Positions 1 through 64,000 of a DNA stretch of 64,000 bases are shown piece by piece; position 1 is the stretch's first letter, and each line of letters starts with the position of its first letter. A program made the position numbers and the translations under genes. The DNA is from a virus. Where the stretch lies: positions 17,255 to 81,254 of IMG/VR virus record IMGVR_UViG_3300021490_000002; one strand, 5' to 3'. The notes beneath the pieces are model-generated. The model was given only the letters and a program-made list of their open reading frames with translations, searched no databases and was not told the origin of the DNA.

Positions 1-294
1 TGGTTAGTCTTAGCTAATCTTTTGCGTGTTGCTGCTTATACTGCTAAAGACTTGACTAAAGAGGGTAATGTAGAGATAAATAAGTTATGGACAAAATTGA
101 CGGATACTCTTAAACCAAGTAATATAATTAGAGAAATAAAAACAGATAGGAAAAGACCTAAGAAAAAAGTAGAGGCTAAAAACGTGAATGAAGCTGTAAT
201 GTCTGAGGATGATGATATTGTAAAAACTTTTGTTGGGTCTATTGGAGCACAGGTTCAAACGCCATTAAAAATAACTAAGAAGAGGGTGAGATAA
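1..294 (+). CDS. Partial protein upstream of the tape measure (3' end only)
   Basis: The frame is open from the first base and ends with TAA just before the tape-measure start, so this is the C-terminal part (about 97 residues) of a gene that begins outside the window. The visible part is strongly charged, with a basic stretch around positions 130-180 (DRKRPKKKVEAK) and a basic C-terminus (KITKKRVR). By position it could be a tail assembly chaperone or tube-associated protein, which normally precede the tape measure. No motif confirms this, so the function is unassigned. A TTG at 22 could start a shorter product but has no Shine-Dalgarno site. Confidence 0.6.
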   Translation, partial: WLVLANLLRVAAYTAKDLTKEGNVEINKLWTKLTDTLKPSNIIREIKTDRKRPKKKVEAKNVNEAVMSEDDDIVKTFVGSIGAQVQTPLKITKKRVR

Positions 295-3200
295 ATGCCT
301 AACATGGAAGGTTTTACTGTTCCGTTTAAATTGATTGTAGATGCAGCGGGAAGTATTGACAAAGTAATTAACGAACTGCTGGGACAGTTAAGGCAGTTAC
401 AGAATAATGTTAATATCAAAATTGATGCAGACTTAGGTATAGATACGGCTAGGTTCATAAAGGACCTAAATAAAGTAAAGCTAGACGTTTCAAGATTTAA
501 AATTGACATTCCTGTTTATGCAAATACAAAGGCCTTAGAATTAGTAAAAAAGACGGTAAAAGTTGACGTTGAAGCTGTCAAGGAATCTCTTACATCTTTA
601 GTTGACTCCTACACAAAAAGGTTCGAGCAACTTGTAAATACAACCAAAGCTATTTCTAAACTTAAGCTCACTTCTCCTTCCCAGCAGAAAGAGTTTGAGG
701 CACTTTTCCAAGAAGGTGTTAGGCAGTTAAATATGATGAAGACTGCCATTGAAAACGTGTATGCTCATCTCCAGCATTTATCTGTAAGGTTGGCTTCTGC
801 TGCATCTGCAGGAAATAAACAATTGATAACGGAGATAGCTGGGCAGTATAGTCAGCTATCCAAAATTTCCGCAGAAGTTACAAAACGGATAGAGGAACGT
901 TTTTCCAAATCATTTGACTCCTTATTGAAACAAGCAACGGCTTTTGCAAATGAAATAAATACTATTAGTGGAAGCTTAGTCATACCAACGTTCTTGACTG
1001 GGGAGGGAATACATAGGGGTGGATATTTTAAGGAGCTGATTGCAGAGGCTGAAAAATTTAAACGGGTTTTGATGAGCGTTACGATGGACGAAAAGCAGGT
1101 TGGGGAGTTACTGCAAGGGTTTGACTATAGTGGTATTTCTGCAATGCGGGCTGAAGTTAGTAGGTTACAAGGAGAAATGTCTTTCCTTATTGATACTATA
1201 CAAAAAGTAAAAGGGGAAGGAGGAGAGGAAGGAGCAAAGAAAGAAATTGATATTTCCCCGTATTTAAAGAAGTTCAAGGAAATTCGCTCCCAATTACTTC
1301 GTGTAAGTGAGGAATATAAAGCTTTTGTTTCCCAGCAATTAGAAAGTAACCTGCAGCTAAAAACTGGGGAAGAAGGTTGGAGAAAGAGTTTAAATGTAAT
1401 CTCATCTATTGTTGACATGGCTGCTAAGTACAAGAGCCAAATACTTACCCTAACCGAATATTTGAAAGAAGGATACAATATTTTAAAGGTGCAGGATAGT
1501 TTCTATAGCGCCCTATTATCTCTGGCCAGAAGTGGTCAGGAAGTGGAAGCTAAGAAGGTTGCTGACTTAGTTAAAGAGTCGAAATTTTTAGAGCAAGCAG
1601 AACAATACCTCAGTAACTTAGTTAGATATGAAAGAGAATACTCAGAGGCTCTAGGAAGTTCATTGGTTGGTGTGAGAGGGCGGAAGGTGTTTCTTGAAGA
1701 GCAGCTAAGGGTATTGAAGTCAATGTTTGTTTTAACTGAGGGGACGAATGCTGCAAATATATTTGACCAGTTAGTGCAGACTCAGGAAAAGCTAGCCGAA
1801 ACAACTGCTCTTGAGAAATTTAAAAATGACTTAGCTTCCATCGGGACGACTATATCTTCTTCTCCTTTAGCTGCTACAAAACGTTTAATCAAGGCCGTAA
1901 ACGAATATAGCTTGGCTACAGGGAAGTCTGCTGCTGAATCTGAAACTACACTTTCTGCTATCACTACGCTAATCAACCAACTTGTTACAAATTATAAGAA
2001 ATTGGACAATTTGAAACTCCCGACTGAGACTGTACTAAACTTTAAAAAACAGATTGTGGACTCTCTTGATATAATTACTCAATTAGGAGTTGTTAGTGAA
2101 TCTACTGCAAAAGAGATAAGAAAGGCCTTTGGAAGTGAACAAATAAAACTGGAATCTCTTTCCTTCCAGTTATCTGCCCAGAAGGATATTGCTCGTAATC
2201 TGGAAAAGGTTCTTGCTTTACAAGTGGCTGGAGTTGATGTGGTTAAGAACTTAGAGGAGATGGAACGCCAGTATATTAGAGCTAAGAGAGATGGTGTAGA
2301 TATAGAAAATTTTCTCCTGAAGGCCGTTGAGAATAGATATGCTGTTACGAATAACTTAGTGGAAGTTTACAGGAGGTTTGTAGAATTAGGTAAAGATGTG
2401 AACTTGATGCCTAAGCAACAACTAGCTCAGTTGGAATCTGCAAAGAAAACTCTGGAATTAATTGTTGGGTTGTCAAAGAAGTTGTCCGAGGAAGAGCGTC
2501 TAAAACTTGGAGTGGATACGGAATCTATCAAGACCTATAAAACTGAACTTATGAGCTTAATTGCCGAGAGAACAAAAGAGGTTGAGCAGATAAAAGTATC
2601 GGAAGAATTTGAGTCTAAGGCCATAGAGCTGATACGGCGTAGAAGTAGGCTTGAAGCCGAAGTAAGACAATCTCTAGCTGAAGGGACTAAACTAATCTCG
2701 GAGGCTACCAACCAGTATAGAGAGTATTTGTCAGTCGTAGATAAGGTTATACTAGCTATTCAGAAAGGGGTGATAGGAGTTGAAGAAGACCTCAGCTTAA
2801 GCGAAGTAAAGAAAAATGTAGTGTCCTCTATAGCCAAAGAATATCAAACCCTAGTTTCTCTTTCCCAGAAGTATGAGGCAGGCTCTATTGAGCACATACG
2901 TATTCTGGAGCAACAAAAGAATCTGTTGAAGGGAATGTTAGACCTGGTTGGGACAGGTAAGTTTGAATTTCCTGTAGGTGGTTTTGAAAATGTGGAAGCT
3001 ATTAAAAAGGCATACCAGTCTGTCGTAGAAACTATCCAGAGGCTTACAATTCCTACAAAAGAATCTATGTTTGCTATTGACACAAGTAAGTTGGTTGCTC
3101 TGGAAGAAAAGGTAAAGGTAATTAAAAGGAACCTGGAAGCCACAGAATTTAAAATTTCTATTGACACTTCGGATTTCATTAAAACTATTGATTCAACCGA

Positions 3201-6200
3201 ACAGGTAAAAACTTCCTTGCGCAGTTACGCTTCTGCACTCCGTTCTCTATACACAGAACAACTTAGGAATAAGGCAGCAACGGATGAGCAGAGGATATCC
3301 ACACTTAAAACACTCACTTCTGTAGAACAAGAGTTAAACATAACTACTGAATTTGAGCGTAGGTTGAAGTCTTTAAGCGACTATCTTGCATCTAAGAGTA
3401 CAACCCTAGAGCAGTTCTTTTCTTCTCCAGAAACAGTCTTACAAAGACTTACTACGACTGAATTGAATACTTTGCAGAGGCGTCTTACTGACGTTGGCGT
3501 TGTTTTGCAGAAAGTATTTACAGTCACCCCCACAACTAATCCTTTTAAGGCCCTAGCTGACTCTGCAAAGGTTTTAGAGGATAGAATAAAAGGGGTGCGT
3601 GAAGTAATGGCAGGGCTGAAGGAAGTTAGCTTTGCTGATATTCTTAAGGAGCGTGAAGCTACCCTTACTGCCCAGATTAAAGAGAGAATAGCAGACCTGC
3701 AGCAAGGTGGAAATGTTATTGAAAAATGGCGGAGGCTGATAGAATCTGTAAATACTGCTCTTAAAGAAGGCGTGTCTATAAACGATGAAATGCTATCTGT
3801 CTTGTTTAAAGAAGAAACTATTTACAGAAAAATTTATGAGTATGCTCAGCAATTAGTTAATTATGCGACTGCAAATATAGATAAGCTTCCAAAAAACATA
3901 CAACAAACCTTAGCCACTCAAGCAAACGAGGCTAAGAAAATCTTAGAGCAATATTCTGGAGTAGGAAATTTTGAAGGATACTCGGAATTCACTAAGTCCC
4001 TGACTTCTTTAAATAAACAGGTTGGTGTTGGAGAGTTTGAGAATATTACAAAGGCAATGAATCAGTTAGAAGAGGTTAGGCGTGTTATTAGTGAAATGGG
4101 AGAGGCATTTATTGGTCCTACTAGAAAAATCAAGAGCGACTATGAAGCTGTAGGTGGCTTTGTAGATGCTACCGTTAAAGAGATAAAGAAGTGGAGGGAT
4201 TTAAATGACCAGATTTTGAAAGATGCTAACTTTATTAAAAATGTTGATGAAGAGACTTACAATATCAAACGGAAGGATGTTCAAGAGCTAAACAACATGG
4301 TTCGTCTTCTCCAGAGGGCACAAGAGCTTAACGCTCGTCTCCAATCATATTCAGTCAAGACAGGCGTTTCTCTGGAGGAGATGAAGACTCCAGAGGGTTT
4401 GTTGAAGCTAAACGAAGCTACTAAAAGCACACCTAAGCTCTACCTTGACATTCTGAAGGCGAACGATGAGTACGCAAAGTTATTGAAGCAGATTTCTGAC
4501 ACTATCCCAAAATCTAAGGAACTTCAGGAAATTTTTGGGGCTTACGCTAGTGCCTTTGATAAGGCTGCTAGAGAAGCAGATGAGGTTAATACAAAGTTAA
4601 AGACTTTAGAAACATTAAAAGAAAAGCAAGTCAGACGGGAAGCTGGTGCATCTATCTTGGATATATTTAGACTTAATTGGTTTATCCAGCTACGTTTATT
4701 CTGGCAGGCATACTTGTTCCTCGGAAGATTAAATGAGGAAGCTATAGAATTCCTACATAACATGAAACTTTTAGGCGCAATTACTCAAGCCTCCTCTCAA
4801 GATATCGAAACCTTAACTAATGCTTTTGATGAGCTAGGAAAGACTGTTGCCTATTCTATGTCTGAGTTGGCAAAAGCTGGAACAGAGATAGCTAAGGCTG
4901 GTTATTCTATCCAGGATACAATTAAGATTTTAGAAACAGGGTCTAAGCTAGCGTACACAACGGGTGCATCTATAGAAGATTCAGCAAACGTTATTACTAC
5001 TGTATTACGTGCATGGAGTATGGATGCAGGTAGGGCAGAAGAGGTTTCCAACATTCTTTTTAATACAATTGTTAATTCTAAAGCCTCTCTCGATGGGTTA
5101 AAGACGGCTATTGGATATGTTGCAGGTATTGCTCCGCAGGCAAATGTTACTTTTTCTGAAATATCTGCTATGTTAGGTATTCTTACAAACGCTGGATTAC
5201 AAGCGTCTAAAGCAGGTACATACACTAGACAGTTTATTAATGCACTTTTAAACCCGTCAGCCAAACTCATAGATTCTCTACATAAAGTCGGATTATCTTT
5301 GTCTGATGTTGACATAAAGTCAGGAGGAATAATTAAGGTCTTGCAACGGATGCACGATGCTGGTTTTAATGTAGCGGATGCTTTTGATAGTATGAATGTG
5401 AGAGCAGCATCGGCGTTCTCTGTATTGATTAGAAATACTGATATTTTAGAGGAATTTACAAATACGTTGGAGTCCCAGCAGGTATTGTTAGATGCATTTG
5501 GCGAGAGTGCTGATTCCTTAAAAGCGCATTTAACACTTATGGTAAATAGTCTGGTTACTGAGTTTGCAAAGAATATGGATTCGTTGAGTCCTGTTATAGA
5601 AGGTGTACTGGCTGGAGCTGAGGATATGATAACGGGCGTCTTACGCCTTGTAGAGTTATTTATTGGATGGATGGATAATCTTGGCTATACAGGGAAACAG
5701 ACGGCAGTTAAATTTTCTGAAATAACCACTGTTATGCTTGCCTTAGTTAGTGCTATGGGACTCCTAAGTAAAATAATGCCCAAACTTATCGGCCTTTTTG
5801 AACTTTTCGCAGGTGCTCTTAATCCCTGGGTTTTTGTTGCTCTTACAACGGCCTTTGGGAGTTTCTTGGCATTGGCCCGAGCCTCTATCTCTGATATTGA
5901 TGAGGTGACAGGAAAACTCTCAGACTTACGTGATTCTTTAAAAGAGCTCCAGAGTATAGCTAAAGAGGGTATAAATATAAGGGTGAAGCTAGAACGTGGA
6001 ATAGAGATAGCGAATTTGGGAAATGTGTTTCGGGATAAACTGCAGGAGTTTTATAAAGTTGCATCTTCAGGGAACCAGAAGTTAATTCAAAAGATGTTTT
6101 CCCGTGGAGATGTAAAAGTAGTAGTTAGAGCTTTTATGGAGTCTGTAACTTCTGCACTCATGAACTATCCTGATAAAGATATACAGGAGATAGGTAAGCG

Positions 6201-9200
6201 CCTTCGTGACCAGATATTTACAATGGAAGCTGGACCAGAAGAAGTGGCAAGAACTGTTGAACAATTTTATACGACACTGACAAAGTTAAATGGTGCCTTC
6301 CTGAAAAACGCCGATATTTTGAAAGGTAAGTGGACTTCAGCGTTAGAAAAAGGGACTACAGTTCTTGAAAAGTTAGATGATACAATGCACCAGTTAATTG
6401 ATTCGTTTAAAGTTTTGAAAGAAAAGAAAGCTGACCTTGAATCTTTGGATTGGGAAGCTAGCCCTCAAACAATAGATACGGTTACAAAGGCTTTTACTGA
6501 GAGTAGGAAGCAATATCTTGAAAATCTTAAAAAGACTTTTGCTATCATCCAAGCATCTTTCTCTGCAATTCCAAAAACTAAAGAGGGGATTCCACAACTA
6601 GAGATACTGCAGGGACAATTAGAAAGGTTAAAAATTATAATTTCAGAAGTTACTAGTTTAAAGGGCGAGAATGCTATCTTTTCTAAAGACGAAGTGGCTA
6701 AGTTAAAAGAGATGACAAACGCAATAGATGAATTTGAAAATAAGATTAATGTAACAAAGGCTACTATACAAAAAACTGTAGATGAGACTATAACTGATAT
6801 ATCGAGTAAGGTTACACAAAAGACTAAGGAAAGTATTCAACAAGCAGACATGGCTATTTTAAAGGAGGTTGATAAACTACTTAAAGACCTAAAAAGTCTA
6901 ACCTCAAAAGTTACTGTCGGCGTTAAACTTACTCTTCTTTCTCCCCAGAAAGGGAATATTGCCAACTTGAAAAAGGACCTCTCTGATGTTTACGAGAAGA
7001 CTCAAACAATATTAGCTTCTATCACACATCTATCTCGTGGAGTATTTTCTTTATCCTCTTCACAAGCAAAAGAGCTAGTACAATCCCTTGAACAGATATG
7101 GACGGCCATTTCTACGGATTTGAAGAGGACTGCAAAAGATGGGGTGGTTACCTTTGATGAAATAACTAAAGCAGCCGAAAGATTAAGAAGCAGCACATCC
7201 TTACGTCAATTTAGCTTAGAAGGTTTAATGCGTGTTCTGGGAGTAGGAAGAGAGGCAGTGCAGGCTCTTGAGAATGAGGTAAATGCAGGTCTCCTAGATA
7301 CTTTCAGTAATTTGGAATTTAAGATTAATGAAGTGGGTAAGGCCCTTGAGTATATTCAAAAGCATCGGAAGGCTTTTGATGCCAAGGATGTGAAACAAGT
7401 TGTTAATCTCTTGGATAATCTCTTAAATAAGCAAGTTCAGTTCTTACAAACTATAACTCAAGCCTCCACTTCTATCTTCCAGAGCGCTAACTATGCTATG
7501 TCGATTTCTTCTTCCATACGGGAGGCATTTACAGGGACGGCCTCTTTGGACGATTTACTAGGTGTTTCTGATACTATCAAGTCGCTGGAAAAACTAAAGG
7601 GGAATGTAACTGATGTAATAATTGAGTTTGATGCGCTTCATAGTAAGTTTGGTGACTTATCAGCGCTTTTAGGGAAGAATGCAGAGAATTCTATGATTGC
7701 GCAACAGGCATTCGCTAAGCTGGGACGAACTGCCTCACAAAGGTTGGATGGTCTTGTGGATAGTTTGAGAAGTAGTGCTACTGAAATAAAGAACATTACA
7801 AATGAAATCAAAAATCTTAATGTTGAAATAGCAAAGATAAAATTTGATTGGCTAAAGACCTTAGAAGAATTTAAAGTTAAGTATAAAGGACCTGAATATG
7901 AATTTAAGGCACAACAAGAGAATTTAATAAATCAAGGAAAGTATGTTCAGGAAGTTCTACAAAATAACCCTTCCATAGATACTGTTGTCTCTGCATTAAC
8001 TGAATTTAGAAATAGCTTGATAGAGTTTGCAAAAGCTAACGCCTATCAACGTGTAGGAAAAGAATCTTTTACAAGGGCGGAGGAGATTACTAAAGCTATC
8101 ATTCAACTGCGGGAGAAGCAAAAAGCTCTACTAGAGGCAAGACTTCAGATTCAGTTGAACTATTATGCTATGGTCTCAAAATTTGCATTGTCGGTGATTG
8201 ACTTGCTGGGAAGGATTAAAGGAATTCTTGGAGAGCTTTACAAAGTAACGGCAGGGCAAAAAGCAGCAGGAGAAGCTGCTACTAAGGGTCAAGAGGGAGT
8301 TAAAGCACCAAAAGCACCTACTGGAGTGAAGCCAGAGGCAGGTAAGCTACAACCGCCAACTAAAGCAACTAAACCAACTACACCGCCAGCTCCTACTACT
8401 ACTCCAGAAGTTGCAAAGACCCCCAACATAAATACACAAAGTTTACAGGAATACGCACAAAAGTTGATGGAGTCATCCCAGAGGTTAAAACAGTCTTCTG
8501 CTGATTTGAATAGTTTTATCAATAGTTTAAGTAAGTTAGGTGGGGCTTTAAAGAGACAGAAAGTGAATGTGTTGTCAGCTAAAGAAGCCTTGATGAATTA
8601 TTCAGCTAGTCTCGGGACTATTAATAGTATAATTCAGCAAACTTTTAATTCAATGGCAGACACTATTAGGGGAACTTTAGCTAATGTTATGACCTCAGCA
8701 CTAAAGCAAGCATTTGAAGGTGACGTGGATTGGTATGGATTGTTTAGTGCTTTTTACTACCAGATTATGCAAATGTATTTTGATATGCTGCTAAAGATAA
8801 TGATGCAGGCGATGATTCAAAAGTTAGGCGGGAAAGAGTTAATGGATACTTTGTTCGGAACGTCAAATGCTTCGGCTTTTCAATCAGCGGTAGCTTCTAG
8901 TGCCACGTCTTTTTCATCTGCAGTTAATAATGCGTCAACTGAAATTATAACGGCTGGGCAAACATTTCATTACTATGTAGCTAACGCTGCTTTAGCTATC
9001 CAAAACGCTGCTGCTTCCTTGGCTGCAGCGTCAGCGTCAAGTGCAGCTAGTACTGCTTTTAATCCAGTTTCTTTGATGGGTCCGATGATGTCTTTACTAT
9101 CTGGAGCTGCTGGAGCTGGTGCGCCTGGAGGCGGTGGAGCCAAGCCTCCTTCTGGTCCTTATAATAATCTTCAACTACCTAAGCCTCAATTCCCGTCATA

Positions 9201-9819
9201 TAAGGTATTTAAAGGCGGTTTAATTCCAGGCTATTATACTGGGGGTGTAGTTTTAGATTCATTTGATGACAGTGAATTGCCCGCTTTTGCCTCTGGAGGA
9301 TTTGCGGGATTGGTAAGGAAAGGGCAGACAGATAAAGATTCCGTTGTAGCAAAGCTTGCAAAAAATGAATTTGTAGTAAATAATAGGATTGTCAGCGAAC
9401 TCGGGGTGGATTTTTTTGAAAAGATAAACCAGGGTGATTTTGTAAGTGCACAATCGTTACTAAATAAAAAGATAATACATACGCCAACTGCAAATCCTGT
9501 TAATACTGGAAGAGAAGTTATGAAGTTTGCAAATACATTTAGTAGCATAAAAACCCAGGAAGTAAGACCTATTAATGTAGGGCTGGAAATACCCGAAGCT
9601 GGAAAGTTCTCAAGGCGGGAGCCTTCAAAAGAAACAACAAAAGAGCAACCATCTAAAACGTTTCCTTCCCCAGAAACAGAGGCTCCAAGAGTTGAGGTGG
9701 TAAATATAGCAGAGCCTGCAATAGCCAGAAGGTATATTAATTCTACTGAGGGTAAGGAGCGGATTGTGAACATAATAACAGGACAACCATTATTTAAACG
9801 ATACTTTTCAAAATTTTAA
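295..9819 (+). CDS. Tail tape measure protein, very long (3174 aa)
   Basis: This protein sets tail length and is threaded through the tail tube. It starts at ATG 295 after GAGGGTGAGATAA. Most of it is charged alpha-helix and coiled coil, as in tape measures. A core resembling the TP901 tape-measure domain lies at about residues 1487-1718, in a Gly/Ala-rich helical region (for example GTEIAKAGYSIQDTI). A hydrophobic region follows at about 1812-1862 and could span a membrane. A Pro/Thr/Lys-rich linker lies near 2670-2705 and an Ala/Gly-rich part near 2900-2960. Siphophage tape measures correspond to about 0.15 nm of tail per residue, which would give a tail near 475 nm. Virion proteins follow directly. 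The family call is firm; the length is an inference. Confidence 0.95.
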   Translation: MPNMEGFTVPFKLIVDAAGSIDKVINELLGQLRQLQNNVNIKIDADLGIDTARFIKDLNKVKLDVSRFKIDIPVYANTKALELVKKTVKVDVEAVKESLTSLVDSYTKRFEQLVNTTKAISKLKLTSPSQQKEFEALFQEGVRQLNMMKTAIENVYAHLQHLSVRLASAASAGNKQLITEIAGQYSQLSKISAEVTKRIEERFSKSFDSLLKQATAFANEINTISGSLVIPTFLTGEGIHRGGYFKELIAEAEKFKRVLMSVTMDEKQVGELLQGFDYSGISAMRAEVSRLQGEMSFLIDTIQKVKGEGGEEGAKKEIDISPYLKKFKEIRSQLLRVSEEYKAFVSQQLESNLQLKTGEEGWRKSLNVISSIVDMAAKYKSQILTLTEYLKEGYNILKVQDSFYSALLSLARSGQEVEAKKVADLVKESKFLEQAEQYLSNLVRYEREYSEALGSSLVGVRGRKVFLEEQLRVLKSMFVLTEGTNAANIFDQLVQTQEKLAETTALEKFKNDLASIGTTISSSPLAATKRLIKAVNEYSLATGKSAAESETTLSAITTLINQLVTNYKKLDNLKLPTETVLNFKKQIVDSLDIITQLGVVSESTAKEIRKAFGSEQIKLESLSFQLSAQKDIARNLEKVLALQVAGVDVVKNLEEMERQYIRAKRDGVDIENFLLKAVENRYAVTNNLVEVYRRFVELGKDVNLMPKQQLAQLESAKKTLELIVGLSKKLSEEERLKLGVDTESIKTYKTELMSLIAERTKEVEQIKVSEEFESKAIELIRRRSRLEAEVRQSLAEGTKLISEATNQYREYLSVVDKVILAIQKGVIGVEEDLSLSEVKKNVVSSIAKEYQTLVSLSQKYEAGSIEHIRILEQQKNLLKGMLDLVGTGKFEFPVGGFENVEAIKKAYQSVVETIQRLTIPTKESMFAIDTSKLVALEEKVKVIKRNLEATEFKISIDTSDFIKTIDSTEQVKTSLRSYASALRSLYTEQLRNKAATDEQRISTLKTLTSVEQELNITTEFERRLKSLSDYLASKSTTLEQFFSSPETVLQRLTTTELNTLQRRLTDVGVVLQKVFTVTPTTNPFKALADSAKVLEDRIKGVREVMAGLKEVSFADILKEREATLTAQIKERIADLQQGGNVIEKWRRLIESVNTALKEGVSINDEMLSVLFKEETIYRKIYEYAQQLVNYATANIDKLPKNIQQTLATQANEAKKILEQYSGVGNFEGYSEFTKSLTSLNKQVGVGEFENITKAMNQLEEVRRVISEMGEAFIGPTRKIKSDYEAVGGFVDATVKEIKKWRDLNDQILKDANFIKNVDEETYNIKRKDVQELNNMVRLLQRAQELNARLQSYSVKTGVSLEEMKTPEGLLKLNEATKSTPKLYLDILKANDEYAKLLKQISDTIPKSKELQEIFGAYASAFDKAAREADEVNTKLKTLETLKEKQVRREAGASILDIFRLNWFIQLRLFWQAYLFLGRLNEEAIEFLHNMKLLGAITQASSQDIETLTNAFDELGKTVAYSMSELAKAGTEIAKAGYSIQDTIKILETGSKLAYTTGASIEDSANVITTVLRAWSMDAGRAEEVSNILFNTIVNSKASLDGLKTAIGYVAGIAPQANVTFSEISAMLGILTNAGLQASKAGTYTRQFINALLNPSAKLIDSLHKVGLSLSDVDIKSGGIIKVLQRMHDAGFNVADAFDSMNVRAASAFSVLIRNTDILEEFTNTLESQQVLLDAFGESADSLKAHLTLMVNSLVTEFAKNMDSLSPVIEGVLAGAEDMITGVLRLVELFIGWMDNLGYTGKQTAVKFSEITTVMLALVSAMGLLSKIMPKLIGLFELFAGALNPWVFVALTTAFGSFLALARASISDIDEVTGKLSDLRDSLKELQSIAKEGINIRVKLERGIEIANLGNVFRDKLQEFYKVASSGNQKLIQKMFSRGDVKVVVRAFMESVTSALMNYPDKDIQEIGKRLRDQIFTMEAGPEEVARTVEQFYTTLTKLNGAFLKNADILKGKWTSALEKGTTVLEKLDDTMHQLIDSFKVLKEKKADLESLDWEASPQTIDTVTKAFTESRKQYLENLKKTFAIIQASFSAIPKTKEGIPQLEILQGQLERLKIIISEVTSLKGENAIFSKDEVAKLKEMTNAIDEFENKINVTKATIQKTVDETITDISSKVTQKTKESIQQADMAILKEVDKLLKDLKSLTSKVTVGVKLTLLSPQKGNIANLKKDLSDVYEKTQTILASITHLSRGVFSLSSSQAKELVQSLEQIWTAISTDLKRTAKDGVVTFDEITKAAERLRSSTSLRQFSLEGLMRVLGVGREAVQALENEVNAGLLDTFSNLEFKINEVGKALEYIQKHRKAFDAKDVKQVVNLLDNLLNKQVQFLQTITQASTSIFQSANYAMSISSSIREAFTGTASLDDLLGVSDTIKSLEKLKGNVTDVIIEFDALHSKFGDLSALLGKNAENSMIAQQAFAKLGRTASQRLDGLVDSLRSSATEIKNITNEIKNLNVEIAKIKFDWLKTLEEFKVKYKGPEYEFKAQQENLINQGKYVQEVLQNNPSIDTVVSALTEFRNSLIEFAKANAYQRVGKESFTRAEEITKAIIQLREKQKALLEARLQIQLNYYAMVSKFALSVIDLLGRIKGILGELYKVTAGQKAAGEAATKGQEGVKAPKAPTGVKPEAGKLQPPTKATKPTTPPAPTTTPEVAKTPNINTQSLQEYAQKLMESSQRLKQSSADLNSFINSLSKLGGALKRQKVNVLSAKEALMNYSASLGTINSIIQQTFNSMADTIRGTLANVMTSALKQAFEGDVDWYGLFSAFYYQIMQMYFDMLLKIMMQAMIQKLGGKELMDTLFGTSNASAFQSAVASSATSFSSAVNNASTEIITAGQTFHYYVANAALAIQNAAASLAAASASSAASTAFNPVSLMGPMMSLLSGAAGAGAPGGGGAKPPSGPYNNLQLPKPQFPSYKVFKGGLIPGYYTGGVVLDSFDDSELPAFASGGFAGLVRKGQTDKDSVVAKLAKNEFVVNNRIVSELGVDFFEKINQGDFVSAQSLLNKKIIHTPTANPVNTGREVMKFANTFSSIKTQEVRPINVGLEIPEAGKFSRREPSKETTKEQPSKTFPSPETEAPRVEVVNIAEPAIARRYINSTEGKERIVNIITGQPLFKRYFSKF

Positions 9820-33200: not shown

Positions 33201-33608
33201 ATGAGTGATAGTTACAACTTAGTTGACCCAACAGTTCCAGATATATCTGCTGAGGATGTATCTTCCGAAAAGCCAGACGGTGTTTTAGATTTTTGCGTCC
33301 GTAACATTTCTTATGTAATCGGCAAGAATAGACAACTCATAGAAGAAGCTGAAGTTGGTTTTGATTCTTACATAGGTAAAAAACCTCATGTCGCTGCTCA
33401 ATTTCAAAACAATATGTTAAAGGCCCTTCAACTAGAAGCTGATTTAGTAAAGCTACTTCTAACTATCCGAGAATATACAAGAAAAGAAACCAAAGAATCT
33501 GGAGAGGATAGTAAGTATGTAGATAATAGAAAAATTGTAATAAATTTAGATAGTAATTCCAGGAGGATGTTGGCTGATGTTATCAGCGGAAAATTCTCTC
33601 ATAAGTAA
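33201..33608 (+). CDS. Candidate terminase small subunit
   Basis: A 135-residue, helical, mostly acidic protein directly upstream of the large terminase and overlapping it by 32 bases. ATG 33201 is chosen; AAGGGG lies about 7 bases before it, and a TTG six bases upstream is less likely. A helical centre (HVAAQFQNNMLKALQLEADLVKLLLTIREYTRKE) and a C-terminal strand (NRKIVINLDSNS) fit a small terminase, but no helix-turn-helix is evident. The call rests on position. Confidence 0.5.
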   Translation: MSDSYNLVDPTVPDISAEDVSSEKPDGVLDFCVRNISYVIGKNRQLIEEAEVGFDSYIGKKPHVAAQFQNNMLKALQLEADLVKLLLTIREYTRKETKESGEDSKYVDNRKIVINLDSNSRRMLADVISGKFSHK

Positions 33609-40352: not shown

Positions 40353-41103
40353 GGTACAACATCTTTTCTGCACTTAAATCAAAGTCGATATAAATTCCAC
40401 TTACACCCCTTCCTTTCCTTTCCAGAATCTTACTTACATAGAATGGGTATGTTAAGGTAAAGTTGCTCTCATACTTCTTTCCTATATGGTAAGGTAAGAC
40501 GACAAACCAGCAATTATCAATAATTGGAGAGGGAATATGAACGTGGTAAACTATCTTGTTTTCTACAAAATAGTTAAAAAAGTTGATAAAATTCTTAGCT
40601 ACTCCTATTGTAGCTCCTGGAAGGATGAAAATCTTATCATCTATAGCGTTAATGACGTCCAGATTCACCTGACTTAGTCTCAGTTCATGAAATGCAGTTA
40701 CTGGAGGACAAAAGCAAATAAGGTCGTGTTCTTTTAAAGGGAAGTCAGCCGTGTCAGGAATTTCTTTCGGAATCGTTGGAATATTTTTACTCTCAACACT
40801 TTCCAATGTATATAAAAACTTATTAGTTAAATTAACCCTTTCAACGTTTACGTCTCTTACCAGATAGAATAGGTCATCCACAACGAGAGGCCTCTTTATA
40901 TTAAACGCCTTGATAATATCTGTAAGAAAGGTACTAAAACAATTATAAACTGGAACTGATATTATATCTACATACGCAACACAACCATTTAACACATATA
41001 TTGTCTGACCTAACTTTTTCAAAATAAGAAAAGAATATGGAAAAGTCTCGTAATATTTTAATGCGTTATCATCTTTTATCTCAATGAGAAAGCTCATCTC
41101 CAA
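40330..41103 (-). CDS. Unknown protein at the end of the portal operon (257 aa)
   Basis: A 257-residue mixed alpha/beta protein without signal peptide. It is rich in Phe, Tyr and Val with several hydrophobic strands (PYSFLILKKLGQTIYVLNGCVAYVDII, then DKIFILPGATIGVAKNFINFFNYF). No family is recognised. It overlaps its upstream neighbour by 23 bases and ends in the bidirectional terminator. Position at the end of the portal/scaffold operon suggests a head-related role, which is not supported by a motif. Confidence 0.6.
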   Translation of the reverse strand: MEMSFLIEIKDDNALKYYETFPYSFLILKKLGQTIYVLNGCVAYVDIISVPVYNCFSTFLTDIIKAFNIKRPLVVDDLFYLVRDVNVERVNLTNKFLYTLESVESKNIPTIPKEIPDTADFPLKEHDLICFCPPVTAFHELRLSQVNLDVINAIDDKIFILPGATIGVAKNFINFFNYFVENKIVYHVHIPSPIIDNCWFVVLPYHIGKKYESNFTLTYPFYVSKILERKGRGVSGIYIDFDLSAEKMLYQNTVGLT

Positions 41104-48846: not shown

Positions 48847-50578
48847 CTGTAGCCTCCTCTAAATATTTATCCTGAGTAAAGGCCATTAAATCTTCCACGT
48901 AAAAGATATTACAACGACCGCCTTTGGTATATCTTCCAGCATCCACCTTGACCGACATATCTGGAACAAAAGAAGAGTCAGAGTCTGCAGACCTTTCCCT
49001 ATGAACAATTACAATTGTATCTGAGTCAGATGCTCCTGCACCTGTCCACGCAATATCAAAATAGTTCATGTTCTCTGCTTTCTTTATATCTATCTTCTTT
49101 GGCTGGGCGATAGCTACAATAATAGCATTTAAGTCTATAGTTAGAACTTTTAGTGTTTTATAAATATTTTCAATGGCCTCTACTTTTGTTTGATTTTTTG
49201 GTATATTTCTGACCATATACTGGACATTATCAAAAACAAAAAATTTCACCCCATATTTATGGTGTACATCCCTAAATGTGTTTTCTAGTTGTTGTGGAGT
49301 TAAAGTCCCCTGGAAGCCTAAGTATAAGGGAATATTCTTCATGACAAAATTGAGTAATTCTACCTTTCCTACCGACCTTCCTATCCCATAATACATGCCA
49401 ACAGCCATGTTTAAAATAACCTGCGGAGGCATTTCCATACAATAAAATAATGTAGGAATACCATTCAACGCATAATATAAAGCTAAAGACAAACTAAACG
49501 TAGTCTTACCCACTTTAGGTAGGCCTGTTAAAGTAATTAGCTGCCCTTCTCTAAAACCAGAGTTTAAAATTTTGTTAAATGATTTGAGATAAGTAGGATA
49601 GTATTCAACGTTAGTTTCTTCTATGGCTAAATCTACTATATCCTTCGGCGTATAAATAGACGGGATTTCAGGAGACTTGGCCTGGGTCTTCAATCGTCTA
49701 ACTGCATCTTTCCCATATTTCTTATAATAGTCGGCTAGGTCACATCCCTCTGGGATAGGAAGGATATAGCACCTATACCTTCCTAACCTTTCCAACCATT
49801 TCTCTATTCCCTTTTTCCCAGCTTCGTCACCATCAAAGGCTAGATATATTTTTTCTGCTTTAGAAAGCAGCTCAACCCAACGGTCATCTATAGAAGTAGC
49901 TCCATTAGTCACTCCAACAGCGTTCGTAAACCCACAGGCAAAAGCAATTATAGTATCCTTTTCACCTTCACATAGAATAATTTCCTTCGCTTTTCCTGTA
50001 TGCAATACCGTCTCTCTAAAGAGCATGTTAGGAGCATCTTTTAACTTCTTATACTTTCCTTCTGACTCATCCTCTCCAAACCACACTCTTAATTTTATAT
50101 CATAGAGCTGGGGATTTCTACCGCCTTCTAAGTCAACAAAGTGGGGTATAACTAAGTACTGCCTTCCTTCTCTCTCCAGATAGCCTAGCTTAAACAATCT
50201 AACAATTTTTTCACTAATGCCCCATTCATCTAATAATATCTGGAGTAAGTATGCGTTCTTTTTCTGTAATAAATTTGCGTGTGCTCTTTCTACAAGTTTA
50301 TAATTTTCCTCTGAGACAGGTTTTACCTTCTTTCCTTTAGGTCCACTTACACTTTTAACTAAACCTAAGAGTTTCTTAAGTTTAAATAAATTGCCTGAGA
50401 TATTATCGCTAGTATGGTGATTGGCATGTTTACAATCCCATAAACCATTAAATTTATTAATATAAAATTTCCAGTCAGATAGCTTACATATAGGACACGT
50501 CTTAACTACAATTTGGGAGTCCGTTTCTCGATACTCCCAACCCATAGCTTGAACAAAATCAAGAGGAGACTCTTGCAC
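48839..50578 (-). CDS. Primase-helicase (T7 gp4-like)
   Basis: A 579-residue bifunctional replication protein. An N-terminal zinc-finger-like set (CPIC at 28-31, then CKHANHH at 49-55) precedes a linker and a TOPRIM domain (ILCEGEKD at 201-208 with Glu204; FDGDEAG at 248-254). The C-terminal DnaB/RecA-type helicase has Walker A GLPKVGKT (352-359), VFD (Walker B, near 448-450) and an arginine-rich end (RERSADSDSS). It primes lagging-strand synthesis and unwinds DNA. It is encoded directly upstream of the polymerase. Confidence 0.92.
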   Translation of the reverse strand: MQESPLDFVQAMGWEYRETDSQIVVKTCPICKLSDWKFYINKFNGLWDCKHANHHTSDNISGNLFKLKKLLGLVKSVSGPKGKKVKPVSEENYKLVERAHANLLQKKNAYLLQILLDEWGISEKIVRLFKLGYLEREGRQYLVIPHFVDLEGGRNPQLYDIKLRVWFGEDESEGKYKKLKDAPNMLFRETVLHTGKAKEIILCEGEKDTIIAFACGFTNAVGVTNGATSIDDRWVELLSKAEKIYLAFDGDEAGKKGIEKWLERLGRYRCYILPIPEGCDLADYYKKYGKDAVRRLKTQAKSPEIPSIYTPKDIVDLAIEETNVEYYPTYLKSFNKILNSGFREGQLITLTGLPKVGKTTFSLSLALYYALNGIPTLFYCMEMPPQVILNMAVGMYYGIGRSVGKVELLNFVMKNIPLYLGFQGTLTPQQLENTFRDVHHKYGVKFFVFDNVQYMVRNIPKNQTKVEAIENIYKTLKVLTIDLNAIIVAIAQPKKIDIKKAENMNYFDIAWTGAGASDSDTIVIVHRERSADSDSSFVPDMSVKVDAGRYTKGGRCNIFYVEDLMAFTQDKYLEEATDA

Positions 50579-56500: not shown

Positions 56501-59500
56501 CTAATTACATGCCGAATATCCGCAGTCTGGGTTTAAGCATGTGCCACTTCTACAGGAACCATAGCCTACACGGAAGGTTTTTTCACCACAAGCAGGGCAA
56601 ACTTGGAGGGAGCTTTTATCTATCTCTTCATCCTCACCAGTACTGTCAGTTTCCTTAAGTTCTTTGGCTTCTAGTAAGTAGTTTTCTAACAGATATCCGA
56701 TAGCACCGAAGACATCATTCACGGAAACGCTTTTGTTTTTGTCTGGGAGATAGAGAAAGAATCTGTCCCCACCACAAGTATCCAGAACTTTTATTATATC
56801 CTGGATAGTAACTCTATCCTTTTGCAGCACTTTTGATACTATTCTTCCCAAAGTTCGCAAGGCAATTGAAGAGAATGTATCCAAGGGTGTAAGGTCAAGG
56901 AAAATTTCTTTAAGTTCTCCATCCCAGTGGTTTCCTCTAAGGTATAAATTACCCCGAGGAGTCTTAACCTCTAATTGAAGTCCTGTCCTAATAAAAGGCC
57001 TTATCTTATCTTTCTTCTCTTCCTTTTCTGTATCTTTACCAAAATCAACTGGAGCCATGTTTAAACATCCATCTCTAAATACAGTCACACCTTTTAATTT
57101 ATGGTGATAAGCTGCAACAAATATCTCTTCCACATCTTTCGGAGTAGCGTCATTAGGGAGATTGTAGGTATAGGATATTCCCATGCATATATTGTCTTGA
57201 CCTACTGCGTGCATTTCCATTTTTCTCTTCCAATCTAATTCCAATTCAGTTTTTAACACATTTTGCACTTTTCTCGGAAACTCTTTTAAACCATCAGCCC
57301 TACCTTTATTGTTATAAATCTTTTCAAGAAGTTTCTCGTTGAAGTCAACACCATACCTCTCACAAATAATCTTCAAGGGCTCTGGGTAAACAGTCCATGT
57401 ATCTCCACTAGAAGTGTGTTTCTTCCAGCACAAAGAAAAATGAGGAACAAAAGAGTAAGAAGCACCACATGAAAGTGCAGTAGAACCAGTAGGCGCAATA
57501 CAAGTAACTAAACTATTTGCTATTCCTTTCTTCCAGTCGTAATAAGTATCGCCAACAATTTCCTTAAACTCCTCTATCTTTGAGTAGTATAGTCGCCCTA
57601 GAATATCTTCCATGTTATGCCTGGAAGAGAACTTAAGCGGTTTTAATAGTGGATTGTTGCTATAATCTTTCTCCTGGGCAAAATACATAGAGTAATGATA
57701 TGCCCTATAAGTTAGGAAGCTACATATTTTTCTAAACAATTCTATTGCTTCATCTGAATCATAAGGAATTTCCTTGAGAATTAGAACGTCTGCGTAGCCT
57801 ATCAATCCCAATCCAATAGGAGCTAGGCCTTCCATTAAATATTTAAAATTCTTATGCGGATATGCAGTCTTCTGTAAAATCCTATTTAAAGCTAACACAC
57901 CATACTTTATATAATAATCAAATAACTTCCAGTTTATTTCGTAATCTTCAGTCAACACCTTCACTAAGTTAATATGACCTAAATTACAAACAAACCAGTC
58001 TGGGCCTGAGACCTCGCCACAGTTCCCCGTACAAATGCCATTAAATACTAAAGCATGATTTACAAACTCAGTTGTATCAAATACAGGCTCTCTTCCCACA
58101 TACTCTATGGCTACCACTGTATCCTCTCGCTCATTTGTTACAGTTGGAAGCCCATCCAAGTATTCTGTAATCTCATCATAATAACGTGAATAAGGAACAC
58201 CTATGTTCTCGAGAAAATTGTTAATATCAATATCATCTTCTATTTTTAGTACATGAGTTGTCTTTTCTATTACACCGTTAAGAACTGGTTTTACTATCTT
58301 TTTCCTTGCACATCTTCTACTAAATATACCAAAGTAAGTAAGCAAGACTTGCAAATCTTTCAAAAAACTCTCATGTGGAGAAAAAATCTGTAAACAAAGA
58401 GATTGCTTTTCTTTACTTACAGTCCCTTTTCCTGCGAAGTATCCCACTATAAAGGCAGCTACCATTCGTTTCGTTCCAGACCAGACAACTTCTGGAATAG
58501 AGTATCTTGTTTCTTCAAAAACACCACAACTCTCTACAAACTCCTTAAGTTTCTCAGACGCAAGAATCTTCTTAACAACTCCCTTTTTAGAATCCTCTTT
58601 TTCAACCCATTTGGCATTCTCATCAATATATTTACGTATATAAGACAATAAAAGTTGTTCTAACAATATCTTTTCAGATTTGGTACGAATACAAAAACCT
58701 GCCTTTGAGTCATTCATATAACCATCAGCGATGAAAAAGCCTAAGATAAATCCCTTAGCATAGTCCTCATCAGTCCCTTCTGGAAGGTCAATGCCTCCGC
58801 TATAAATCCACACTTTGTCGCCGACATTCATATCAGCTAACTTTATTTTACCTCTATTTGTGTAAAAATCATGCCATCTAGTAGCTTTTAGTTCATATCC
58901 AGCTTTAGTCCTTACCAACCAAACATCTGCCTCTTTTGAAGTCATAAATACAGGAACAGCCTTAAAGTACTTTTTATCTTCATCCCCAGATTGCCTAATA
59001 TCCTGAACCACAACTAAATCCTTCCCCGAACGATATAAGTCTATTATCCGCTTATACCCCCATACAGTTAGCAATCTGGAGTCAGCAGTTACGCACGGGT
59101 TGGTTGAAATAATATCACCATAAGCTGGGTCAGGATTATCTATATTCATTCTATCATAAAATAATAAACCTGGGTCTCCACATTCCCATGCCTTGCTAAG
59201 AATTATCTTCCATAGTTCTTTACCATCAAATGTCTTTCCTGCATACGCAGACCTCTCTCCTATTGGAGATTGATACGGTATTTGCGCATCCCCATCACCT
59301 AATACTGCGTCCATAAATGCATCTGTTACACAAACTGATATATTCATGGAAGTAAACTTACTTCCTGTATTATCTTTAGCTAAAATAATATCCTTACAAT
59401 CAGGATGATTAAACATCGCTGATATCAGATTGGCTGCCCTCCTACTTTTTCCTCCAGACTTGACTTGTTCAGCAATTTCCTGAACGACTCTTAGATACGA

Positions 59501-59869
59501 TAAAGGTCCTGATGCCCTTCCACCGCTGGAGATAGGAGCGTTTCTTTCTCTTAAACGAGTTATTGGAATTCCTGCGCCACCACCATCTTTATATATAGTC
59601 GCAACTGTACGCCACATTTCAGTTATGGAATCCATAGAATCTTCAAGACCTGTTATAAAGCACGCACATAAACACTTTCCTGGGTCTCCAGCATTCATCA
59701 TAGCTGGTGTATTCAGTCTAAAGACATCGCCTTCAAGCATTTCAAAGTATATTCTCCTTTCCTCATCAATATTCCCCAAATAAGTAGCTATCCTCTTATG
59801 ACATTCTGTTATTGTCTCTCCAGGATTCAAATAGAGTTTTTCATATACTTTTTGTTTAACTGTCTCCAT
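56501..59869 (-). CDS. nrdJ: Class II ribonucleotide reductase with intein
   Basis: A 1122-residue precursor of the cobalamin-dependent reductase that makes deoxynucleotides; 764 residues after splicing. Extein features: FRLNTPAMMNAG, GDGGGAGIPI-type and GGRASGPLSYLRV segments near the N-terminus, and the conserved NP|CGE motif holding the radical cysteine (Cys617 of the precursor), followed by CNLGHINL. A C-terminal zinc-ribbon-like tail (CPACG ... CRSGTCLNPDCGYSAC) is typical of NrdJ. An intein (residues 259-616) splits NP from CGE. ATG 59869 follows GGAGGT. No NrdB or NrdG-like partner is seen in the window, as expected for class II. Confidence 0.92.
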   Translation of the reverse strand: METVKQKVYEKLYLNPGETITECHKRIATYLGNIDEERRIYFEMLEGDVFRLNTPAMMNAGDPGKCLCACFITGLEDSMDSITEMWRTVATIYKDGGGAGIPITRLRERNAPISSGGRASGPLSYLRVVQEIAEQVKSGGKSRRAANLISAMFNHPDCKDIILAKDNTGSKFTSMNISVCVTDAFMDAVLGDGDAQIPYQSPIGERSAYAGKTFDGKELWKIILSKAWECGDPGLLFYDRMNIDNPDPAYGDIISTNPCVTADSRLLTVWGYKRIIDLYRSGKDLVVVQDIRQSGDEDKKYFKAVPVFMTSKEADVWLVRTKAGYELKATRWHDFYTNRGKIKLADMNVGDKVWIYSGGIDLPEGTDEDYAKGFILGFFIADGYMNDSKAGFCIRTKSEKILLEQLLLSYIRKYIDENAKWVEKEDSKKGVVKKILASEKLKEFVESCGVFEETRYSIPEVVWSGTKRMVAAFIVGYFAGKGTVSKEKQSLCLQIFSPHESFLKDLQVLLTYFGIFSRRCARKKIVKPVLNGVIEKTTHVLKIEDDIDINNFLENIGVPYSRYYDEITEYLDGLPTVTNEREDTVVAIEYVGREPVFDTTEFVNHALVFNGICTGNCGEVSGPDWFVCNLGHINLVKVLTEDYEINWKLFDYYIKYGVLALNRILQKTAYPHKNFKYLMEGLAPIGLGLIGYADVLILKEIPYDSDEAIELFRKICSFLTYRAYHYSMYFAQEKDYSNNPLLKPLKFSSRHNMEDILGRLYYSKIEEFKEIVGDTYYDWKKGIANSLVTCIAPTGSTALSCGASYSFVPHFSLCWKKHTSSGDTWTVYPEPLKIICERYGVDFNEKLLEKIYNNKGRADGLKEFPRKVQNVLKTELELDWKRKMEMHAVGQDNICMGISYTYNLPNDATPKDVEEIFVAAYHHKLKGVTVFRDGCLNMAPVDFGKDTEKEEKKDKIRPFIRTGLQLEVKTPRGNLYLRGNHWDGELKEIFLDLTPLDTFSSIALRTLGRIVSKVLQKDRVTIQDIIKVLDTCGGDRFFLYLPDKNKSVSVNDVFGAIGYLLENYLLEAKELKETDSTGEDEEIDKSSLQVCPACGEKTFRVGYGSCRSGTCLNPDCGYSACN
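58022..59095 (-). mobile_element. Intein with LAGLIDADG endonuclease domain in nrdJ
   Basis: A 358-residue in-frame insertion starting at Cys259 (CVTADSRLLT) and ending Gly-Asn616 before Cys617. Splicing blocks: A at CVTADSRLL, B at ELKATRWHDFYTNRGKIKLADMNVGD (T330..H333), F at PVFDTTEFVNHALVFNGICTGN. The penultimate residue is Gly rather than His, which some inteins tolerate. LAGLIDADG helices: KGFILGFFIADGYM (residues ~372-385) and AFIVGYFAGKGTV (~472-484). In the second the catalytic acid is Lys, so the endonuclease may be inactive or a nickase. Confidence 0.92.
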
Positions 59870-60808: not shown

Positions 60809-61339
60809 TTATGCTCCAGTATGACCAAAGCCACCTCTGGAAACTGTCTCTGTCTCCTTTTCTGTAAAAATAATTTCATATTTATAGCACATACGTTCTA
60901 CCACTCTAAATTGTGCTATTCTCTGTCCCAGCCTCAACGTAGTCCCCCGTGTAAAATATGCTACCAATCCCCAAATGTCCTCGTCACCTCTAAAATCATT
61001 ATCAATCACACCCATAGAATTTCCTACTAAAATCCCATGTTTAAGAAATAACGAACTTCTGGGAAGGAGATGAGCTTCGTAAGGTTCAGGGAGAGCTATA
61101 GAGACACCTAAATTCAAAACGCATCCAGTCCCTTTCTTAAAACTATACTCGTTGCCGTGTACCTCGTAATCTTTTCCATGAAGTATAGAATCTTTGCTTG
61201 CTGGATGTATTCCACAAAAACTTAAATCAATCCAATCGCCATGCATTTCTACTCTCGCAAAATCTGAATGGGTTTTGATAGCTATAATTACTGGTTTCCT
61301 AAGACCTACCTTTATAGTCCTCTCTGTTTGTTTTACCAT
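60809..61339 (-). CDS. dut: dUTPase (trimeric type)
   Basis: A 176-residue enzyme that hydrolyses dUTP to dUMP and keeps uracil out of DNA. Five motifs are visible: WIDLSF (motif 1 region), LPRSSL (motif 2), GNSMGVIDNDFRGDED (motif 3, with the catalytic Asp), GQRIAQFRV (motif 4) and RGGFGHTG (motif 5). Motif 1 is somewhat diverged from DAGYDL. The start follows TGGAGGT. The product dUMP would feed the thymidylate synthase encoded nearby. Confidence 0.88.
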   Translation of the reverse strand: MVKQTERTIKVGLRKPVIIAIKTHSDFARVEMHGDWIDLSFCGIHPASKDSILHGKDYEVHGNEYSFKKGTGCVLNLGVSIALPEPYEAHLLPRSSLFLKHGILVGNSMGVIDNDFRGDEDIWGLVAYFTRGTTLRLGQRIAQFRVVERMCYKYEIIFTEKETETVSRGGFGHTGA

Positions 61340-61860: not shown

Positions 61861-62685
61861 TTACTCCCGTTTCTTATTTAGTCTAATTTCCATATAGTCT
61901 TTATGGAATGAATAAGCATGAATACCTTTAGATGAGTAAGCTATTGGACCAGGATTCACTCTGGGAAGAAAAGTTGCGACGTACTGATTGAGTAGGGCTA
62001 TTCCACCGATATTTGTAGGCCATCCGCCAACAGCATCCCAGGAACGGAATACAACATCTGTCTGGAGATAAAAGTTACCGTTATCGTCTTCTATAACTTT
62101 AAACCCAATACCCCTAAGACATGGACTTGTAAGCCTCTCTGTTTCGTCTTTATATGGGACTTCATATCCCAGATTTAATTCTGGATAACCAACGTTAATG
62201 TAGCAATGCTCGTTTCCATACCCGTGCTCTTTAAAATGATGTATGACCCACTCAATCATATTCGGAACTGCAATTCCTCTTCCTAATAAAGACAGTAGCT
62301 TCTTTTCCTGAGACGTATAAAACTTTGTAATTGTGTGATGGATAGGGGGCATTCTAAGTTCTCCACCGACTAGAAACGTCCCATATTTGTAGTGTTCATT
62401 TTCCGCAGTGACTCCGTTCAAAAGATAGTTTAAAAAATATTCTTCAATCTCCTCTTCAGATGTAGGTGCTGGAAGTCCAAAGTTTGGGGGAACATAGGGA
62501 CACTTAGGTTCGTGAGGATTGTGAATATAGCCCGCAATGTAATCCAACGAATACCTTGCCTCACCTTTGTAAGAACCTGACGTTATCTCGTATTTTTTAC
62601 CATAAGTATAAATAGCATTCAATATGTCAAACCAAGCATCATCCACCGTATAGTTTTCTAAGAAGATTGGTTTAAATTTTTTCAT
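61861..62685 (-). CDS. Diverged thymidylate synthase (ThyA fold)
   Basis: A 274-residue protein making dTMP from dUMP if active. The key ThyA residues can be aligned by eye: Cys189 in SPCLRG (catalytic PCH motif), RSWD at 214-217, WPTNIGGIALL with Asn225, and GIHAYSFHKDYME with His256 and Tyr258 (H.Y motif). The normal PCH is changed to PCL, and the N-terminal region is unlike E. coli ThyA. The neighbouring dUTPase gene supports the assignment. ThyX signature RHR was not found. Confidence 0.75.
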   Translation of the reverse strand: MKKFKPIFLENYTVDDAWFDILNAIYTYGKKYEITSGSYKGEARYSLDYIAGYIHNPHEPKCPYVPPNFGLPAPTSEEEIEEYFLNYLLNGVTAENEHYKYGTFLVGGELRMPPIHHTITKFYTSQEKKLLSLLGRGIAVPNMIEWVIHHFKEHGYGNEHCYINVGYPELNLGYEVPYKDETERLTSPCLRGIGFKVIEDDNGNFYLQTDVVFRSWDAVGGWPTNIGGIALLNQYVATFLPRVNPGPIAYSSKGIHAYSFHKDYMEIRLNKKRE

Positions 62686-63756: not shown

Positions 63757-63949
63757 AACAACCTCCTTGTTTTAAAATTTCTACCTTAAAGCCCCCAAAA
63801 GGCCTCAAGGAATCTACCATAAACTCCTTCCCGCAAGGACATACAGCTTTATACACTGTCTTTCCTGAGACCACATCGACAAAATAAGACGTATGTCCTG
63901 TAAGCGGTCTATGGATTCCTAACACACATAAGAGTTTACCTAAAAACAT
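63728..63949 (-). CDS. Small cysteine-containing protein (73 aa)
   Basis: A 73-residue protein with hydrophobic N-terminus (FLGKLLCVLGIHRPL), a CPCGK motif and further cysteines (GGCYEKKKTQIC). It resembles small phage or bacterial zinc-type proteins that begin with 'LLC.LG.H.' and have a CxCG pair. It is preceded by AAGGA, and its 3' end overlaps the next gene. Confidence 0.55.
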   Translation of the reverse strand: MFLGKLLCVLGIHRPLTGHTSYFVDVVSGKTVYKAVCPCGKEFMVDSLRPFGGFKVEILKQGGCYEKKKTQIC

Positions 63950-63951
63950 AA

Positions 63952-64000
63952 CTAAGCATCCTTTGTTTTTAGTGCTTGCCTTAACAATTCCAGCGGAACA
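63952..64000 (-). CDS. Partial gene at the window edge (C-terminus)
   Basis: Read from the right edge on the - strand, one frame gives VPLELLRQALKTKDA followed by TAG at 63954-63952, 3 bases before the next start. This spacing and the helical ending make it the likely 3' end of an upstream gene. Another frame is also open through the end, so the call is tentative. Confidence 0.4.
   Translation of the reverse strand, partial: VPLELLRQALKTKDA

What the first reader, a model, noticed from the sequence alone, without database searches (positions are those of the whole stretch)
1..64000. GATC appears to be completely absent from 64 kb
Reading the whole window by eye, including across block boundaries, I found no GATC on the + strand (GATC is palindromic, so on neither strand). 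With a base composition near 36% GC about 200 would be expected by chance (rough estimate). The avoidance is visible at codon level: Asp before a C-starting codon is written GAC (for example GACCCA at 34675-34680), while GAT is common elsewhere. Related sites such as GANTC and AGCT are frequent. This fits strong selection against a GATC-specific restriction or damage system (MboI/Sau3AI/DpnII type) in the host, and would be an unusually complete case.
Basis: partly seen in the sequence, partly recalled or inferred. Interest (0 to 1): 0.72.

Follow-up and report, generated by a model that had tools for sequence, protein, structure and literature searches.

The report
Phage genome purged of restriction sites
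The window is part of an 81-kb uncultured phage genome that has lost not only every GATC but also every copy of at least eight other short restriction-enzyme targets, an extreme example of a known phage defence (having no sites to cut) that also records the restriction systems its hosts probably carry.

Summary
GATC occurs 0 times in the 64-kb window (167 expected from a second-order Markov model) and 0 times in the whole 81,254-bp virus record (214 Markov, 178 with synonymous codons shuffled). GATC is one of at least nine independent targets that are missing entirely: also CCGG, CGCG, GCSGC, GTMKAC, TCTAGA, CCTNAGG, ACATGT and CAGCTG. GGTACC, CCATGG, GCATGC, ATCGAT and GATN4ATC are probable further cases. 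Several are degenerate or include non-palindromic words: GTAGAC is gone, and GCSGC is gone while GCWGC is in excess. That is the pattern of enzyme specificities, not of general palindrome or composition bias. No DNA methyltransferase, hypermodification or known anti-restriction gene was found. The best reading is a phage freed by selection of the sites of many Type II restriction systems carried by its host or hosts. The host is unidentified; neighbouring IMG sample numbers point to Guaymas Basin hydrothermal sediment. Complete site loss is known (phage K, GATC), and cyanophages in my control panel lack 8-13 hexamers, so this is an extreme new member of a known kind.

The parts
1..64000 (.). 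Stretch with zero GATC, CCGG and CGCG; also free of GCSGC, GTMKAC, TCTAGA, CCTNAGG, ACATGT, CAGCTG, GGTACC, CCATGG and GCATGC. The whole window is G000:C1:17255-81254 of an 81,254-bp virus record.
   Evidence: Word counts in the window and in the whole record; record placement.
34675..34680 (+).
   Evidence: Sequence check; 123 of 123 Asp codons before C are GAC.
40624..40633 (.). GATGAAAATC: the only GATN4ATC (BsaBI/MamI-type) site left in 81 kb (about 18 expected)
   Evidence: record position 57878; kept in all sampled contigs that cover it.
3196..3206 (.). The only ACCN5GGT left (about 8.6 expected)
   Evidence: record position 20450.
295..9819 (+). Tape-measure protein, 3,174 aa (PhageMin_Tail): long-tailed phage
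   Evidence: Pfam PF10145, E 1.7e-30.
33577..35190 (+). Terminase large subunit (phrog_38)
   Evidence: PHROGs E 2.4e-65.
46273..48846 (-). Family A DNA polymerase
   Evidence: PHROGs phrog_17, E 4.5e-103.
48839..50578 (-). DnaG/DnaB-type primase-helicase
   Evidence: PHROGs phrog_239 and phrog_19.
56501..59869 (-). Class II (NrdJ) ribonucleotide reductase carrying a LAGLIDADG intein inserted in the NPCGE motif
   Evidence: Pfam and NCBIfam; translation.
60809..61339 (-). dUTPase
   Evidence: Pfam PF00692, E 6.4e-13.
61861..62685 (-). Thymidylate-synthase homologue (C-terminal match to the methanogen type). The Asn of the P-x-NI motif is kept, so it looks dUMP-acting rather than a dCMP hydroxymethylase.
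   Evidence: NCBIfam TIGR03283, E 7e-13; sequence; the residue assignment is my reading.

Best explanation
The genome belongs to a tailed, bacterium-type phage that evades restriction by having no targets. Many Type II restriction-modification systems in its host lineage, or across the set of hosts it moves between, have each selected against their own recognition sequence. Synonymous changes, plus continued purging of new mutants, have driven GATC, CCGG, CGCG, GCSGC, GTMKAC, TCTAGA, CCTNAGG, ACATGT and CAGCTG to zero and several more close to zero. Shown: the complete absence, its excess over composition, codon and protein constraints, the degenerate enzyme-like motif shapes, and no detected protective gene in the phage. 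Inferred: that the cause is restriction, the number of systems, and that they sit in the host.
For: Zeros against large expectations in protein-preserving shuffles: GATC 178, CCGG 82, GTMKAC 59, CGCG 38, GCSGC 28, TCTAGA 23, CCTNAGG 16, ACATGT 15, CAGCTG 14.5. Twenty order-2 Markov simulations of 50 kb gave no such zero, while both ends of this genome gave nine each. The motifs have enzyme-like degeneracy: all four words of GTMKAC are absent, including non-palindromic GTAGAC/GTCTAC, while GTTAAC and GTGCAC remain; GCSGC is 0 while GCWGC is 90 vs 69.5; CCTNAGG is zero for every N. Palindromic neighbours are kept (AGGCCT 33 vs 15, CTGCAG 28 vs 15, AAGCTT 36 vs 38). No DPPY/NPPY/PCQ methyltransferase motif in any ORF, and no DNA methyltransferase, anti-restriction or integrase family among the matches seen. 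Other assemblies of the virus differ by 33 SNPs, none of which creates a site. Site elimination is an established anti-restriction strategy against Type II systems, strongest in non-temperate phages (PMC6286503).
Against: No host genome, methylome or restriction gene was linked to this phage; searches for spacer-like matches used one 20-kb piece against samples of four phyla and found nothing. The SNP test has no power (about 1.5 site-creating changes expected among 33). GCAN6TGC would be Type I-like, and Rusinov et al. saw no avoidance of Type I sites, so that weak case may be chance. The partial depletions (TCGA 35 vs 109-168, GTAC 109 vs 220-243, TACGTA, GTTAAC) are not explained individually. 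Only the first 25 of 52 Pfam and 104 PHROG families were printed for the pooled scan, so an unlisted weak match is possible.
Confidence: 0.86

Rival explanations
1. Only a GATC-specific system (MboI/Sau3AI/DpnII type) in the host shaped the genome.
For: GATC is the largest single deficit: 0 vs 167-219 in the window.
Against: CCGG, CGCG, GCSGC, GTMKAC, TCTAGA, CCTNAGG, ACATGT and CAGCTG do not contain GATC and are also zero.
Confidence: 0.03
2. The pressure comes from many different hosts or strains, each with a few restriction systems, so the absent set is the union over a host range rather than one cell's arsenal. This is a variant of the main explanation.
For: Partial depletions next to complete ones (TCGA, GTAC, CTAG) fit pressures of different age or host share. 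Near-identical virus contigs come from five samples.
Against: The complete zeros need strong, persistent selection for each motif, which is easier if the systems are met often or together. The two versions could not be separated here.
Confidence: 0.35
3. A general mutational or structural bias against palindromes or certain words, shared with the host, removed them.
For: Several other 6-bp palindromes are mildly depleted (GTTAAC 5 vs 19, TACGTA 7 vs 21).
Against: Non-palindromic GTAGAC is zero; other palindromes are at or above expectation (AGGCCT, CTGCAG, TAGCTA, AAATTT); GCSGC is absent but GCWGC is in excess; CCWGG is high (109 vs 75) while CCGG is zero.
Confidence: 0.04
4. Phage-encoded endonucleases used to destroy host DNA cut these words, and the phage had to lose them.
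For: Phages with such nucleases exist in principle (own knowledge).
Against: It would need about nine nucleases; the only nuclease-like domain noted besides resolvase and repair genes is the LAGLIDADG intein.
Confidence: 0.02
5. Artefact of assembly, library digestion or sequence handling.
For: None found.
Against: Contigs from several samples agree at 99.9-100% and lack the same words; digestion cannot produce a continuous site-free contig with intact ORFs.
Confidence: 0.01

Closest known systems
Staphylococcus phage K (Kayvirus): elimination of GATC, evasion of Sau3A
   Same: Zero GATC in a large lytic phage genome (PMC6532042; 0 vs 112.6 in its first 50 kb).
   Different: In the 50 kb tested phage K lacks three palindromes (GATC, GGCC, GGTACC); the present phage lacks nine there, including three tetramers.
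Cyanophages of filamentous hosts (Aphanizomenon CL131, Planktothrix PaV-LD, Nostoc A1)
   Same: 8-13 hexamer palindromes are zero in 50 kb, so loss of many targets at once is not unique; ACATGT is missing in all three and CAGCTG and GGTACC in two, as here.
   Different: None of the three lacks any 4-bp palindrome, so the summed expected count of missing sites is 83-129 there against about 270 here.
Thermus phage P23-45 and Moorella phage MTATph1
   Same: GATC 0 and 3 in 50 kb, with other palindromes missing.
   Different: Fewer independent targets and a smaller total.
Recognition-site avoidance as surveyed by Rusinov et al. 2018 (PMC6286503)
   Same: Complete elimination of Type II sites, 7.1% of host-matched Type II site-genome pairs.
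   Different: There the host enzyme was known; here the host is unknown and the targets are inferred from the phage alone.
T4-type DNA hypermodification
   Same: Both defeat restriction.
   Different: No modification gene was recognised here, and site loss is the strategy.

Membership tests
Phages using Type II restriction-site elimination | At least one Type II target at under 10% of expectation, with expectation over 15 | tested here: met
   GATC, CCGG, CGCG, GCSGC, GTMKAC, TCTAGA and CCTNAGG at 0 with expectation 15.7-178.
Phages using Type II restriction-site elimination | Deficit not explained by base, k-mer or codon composition | tested here: met
   Markov and protein-preserving shuffle nulls; simulations.
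Phages using Type II restriction-site elimination | Host carries the cognate restriction enzyme | not testable with these tools
   Host unidentified; samples of four phyla gave no host link.
Phages using Type II restriction-site elimination | Non-temperate lifestyle (where elimination is strongest) | tested here: inconclusive
   No integrase among the families seen, but the family lists were cut off and the record may lack its ends.
Base-hypermodified (T4-like) phages | dCMP/dUMP hydroxymethylase or other modification genes | tested here: inconclusive
   A thymidylate-synthase homologue with the dUMP-type Asn is present; no glycosyltransferase or DNA methyltransferase was recognised.
Phages protected by own DNA methyltransferase | DNA methyltransferase gene | tested here: not met
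   No catalytic motif in any of 90 ORFs and no Pfam or PADLOC DNA-methyltransferase match among those listed.

The most novel reading that the evidence does not exclude
The set of missing words is a readable negative imprint of a whole restriction arsenal: nine or more distinct Type II specificities, possibly up to about fourteen, acting on one phage lineage, so an unknown host's restriction repertoire could be predicted and the host recognised from the phage genome alone. GATC avoidance may even have reached the proteins: Asp followed by His or Gln is 27 against 62 expected, and is similarly low in phage K and the Moorella phage.
Probability: 0.5. Interest if true: 0.62.

Novelty: new member of a known kind. 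Interest (0 to 1): 0.42.

Why it matters
It is a very clean natural case of passive anti-restriction: many targets purged together with no detected protective gene. The missing words make a testable prediction of the host's restriction systems and could help assign hosts to uncultured viruses. There is also a practical warning: methods that cut at GATC (Sau3AI/DpnII Hi-C) cannot cut such a phage. The Guaymas mat Hi-C study used Sau3AI plus MluCI (PMC10159854), and only MluCI (AATT, 703 sites here) would cut this genome.

Tried and rejected
Host identification: terminase, polymerase, RNR and thymidylate synthase have only distant relatives (about 22-30% identity to phages; RNR 29-34% to many phyla), which says nothing about the host. 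DNA searches for spacer-like matches in 20 assorted genomes and in samples of Desulfobacterota, Nitrospirota, the Syntrophoarchaeum phylum and the Dehalococcoidia phylum gave chance-level hits; the hits whose surroundings were checked show no CRISPR arrays. Beggiatoaceae of Guaymas Basin, reported to carry restriction genes of foreign origin (cited in PMC6390638), are an untested candidate because no genome handle could be reached. NspI (RCATGY) was considered and rejected: ACATGT and GCATGC are zero, but ACATGC occurs 24 times. GCNGC, GTNNAC and GGNCC as whole motifs were rejected because many members remain. The SNP test for purifying selection has no power. No paper names the IMG samples of this virus.

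Full report
What was checked. The window has 64,000 bases at 37.4% GC and contains no GATC; 167 are expected from a second-order Markov model and 219 from base composition. It is positions 17,255-81,254 of an 81,254-bp virus record. I fetched the remaining 17 kb; the full record also has no GATC against 214 expected. Shuffling synonymous codons while keeping every protein gives 178 on average and never fewer than 142 in 100 shuffles. At codon level the avoidance is absolute in all three frames: Asp before C is GAC in 123 of 123 cases, Ile after a G-ending codon is never ATC, and TCN never follows xGA.

CCGG and CGCG are also completely absent (66 and 39 expected in the full record). Scans of longer and gapped words found further complete absences, with protein-preserving expectations in brackets: GTMKAC (59), GCSGC (28), TCTAGA (23), CCTNAGG (16), ACATGT (15), CAGCTG (14.5). 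Probable further cases are GGTACC (9), CCATGG (7-16), GCATGC (6-7.5), GATN4ATC (1 left of about 18), TTCGAA (1 of 14) and ATCGAT (0 of 7-15, confounded by a general TCGA deficit). Weak cases are GCAN6TGC (0 of 6.6) and ACCGAG (0 of 10.6). TCGA, GTAC, CTAG and CATG are partly depleted.

Why restriction. The motif shapes discriminate between explanations. GTMKAC is the AccI pattern, and its non-palindromic members are gone as well. GCSGC is gone while GCWGC is above expectation. CCTNAGG is gone for every N. Other palindromes, such as AGGCCT, CTGCAG, TAGCTA and AAGCTT, are normal or in excess. A general avoidance of palindromes, a codon bias or a simple mutational bias does not do this. The enzyme names attached to the motifs come from general knowledge of restriction enzymes, not from a database search here.

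Anatomy. The genome encodes a terminase, portal, capsid, a 3,174-aa tape-measure protein, family A polymerase, primase-helicase, UvsX-like recombinase, Holliday resolvase, dUTPase, thymidylate-synthase homologue and an intein-bearing class II RNR. Gene starts carry strong AGGAGG-type signals. This suggests a bacterial host. No DNA methyltransferase motif was found in any ORF and no DNA methyltransferase, anti-restriction or integrase family among the matches seen, with the caveat that the pooled lists were truncated.

Comparison. Over 50-kb pieces, this phage lacks nine palindromes with a summed expectation of about 270. Phage K lacks three (133), Thermus P23-45 six (188) and the Moorella phage four (40, with GATC down to 3); Aphanizomenon CL131 lacks 12 (129), Planktothrix PaV-LD 13 (123) and Nostoc A1 eight (83); T4, SPbeta, Ma-LMM01 and CP81 lack none. 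Twenty simulated sequences lacked none. The kind is therefore known, and site elimination has been surveyed (PMC6286503). The present phage has the largest total in this small, hand-picked panel, because three tetramers are gone at once.

Provenance and host. Near-identical contigs come from IMG samples 3300021482, 3300021491, 3300021494, 3300021503 and 3300021504. Samples 3300021469 and 3300021472 are Guaymas Basin hydrothermal sediments (PMC9723716), so this virus probably comes from the same project; that is inference from neighbouring numbers. Host searches failed, though they covered limited samples with one 20-kb piece each. Guaymas Beggiatoaceae, whose restriction genes were reported to be related to a wide range of organisms (cited in PMC6390638), are an untested candidate.

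A possible protein imprint. Asp followed by His or Gln is 27 against 62 expected here, with similarly low ratios in phage K (19/43) and the Moorella phage (24/55), against 0.63-0.98 in GATC-containing controls; Thermus P23-45, also GATC-free in the piece tested, is at 0.63. This is suggestive only.

Verdict. The finding is real and part of a broader, enzyme-shaped purge. The mechanism is very probably selection by many Type II restriction systems. It is an extreme new member of a known kind, and the missing link is the host.

Noticed in passing
window 56501-59869: Class II ribonucleotide reductase interrupted by a LAGLIDADG intein at the NPCGE motif; the Moorella phage RNR carries an insertion at the same place.
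   Followed up: partly
window 32446-33183: Spermidine-synthase-domain protein (PF01564, E 1.2e-12) just before the terminase; the Moorella phage MTATph1 carries an annotated S-adenosylmethionine decarboxylase, so polyamine genes may recur in such phages.
   Followed up: no
window 62919-63281: Small protein with a RyR domain (PF02026).
   Followed up: no
L001:4775-7849: Two adjacent ~500-aa proteins with concanavalin A-like Laminin_G_3 domains, possibly adsorption proteins.
   Followed up: no
whole record: Partial depletion of TCGA (35 vs 109-168) and GTAC (109 vs 220-243), perhaps older, weaker or newer restriction pressures.
   Followed up: partly
L005, L006, L007, L008: Distantly related phage contigs (28-29% terminase identity, 46-47% GC) show their own set of depleted sites: CCGG, GATC, GGCC and TCGA.
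   Followed up: no
L123, L124, L126 (first 50 kb of CL131, Nostoc A1, PaV-LD): Cyanophages of filamentous hosts lack 8-13 hexamer palindromes each; the passages on restriction in the CL131 paper do not mention this.
   Followed up: partly
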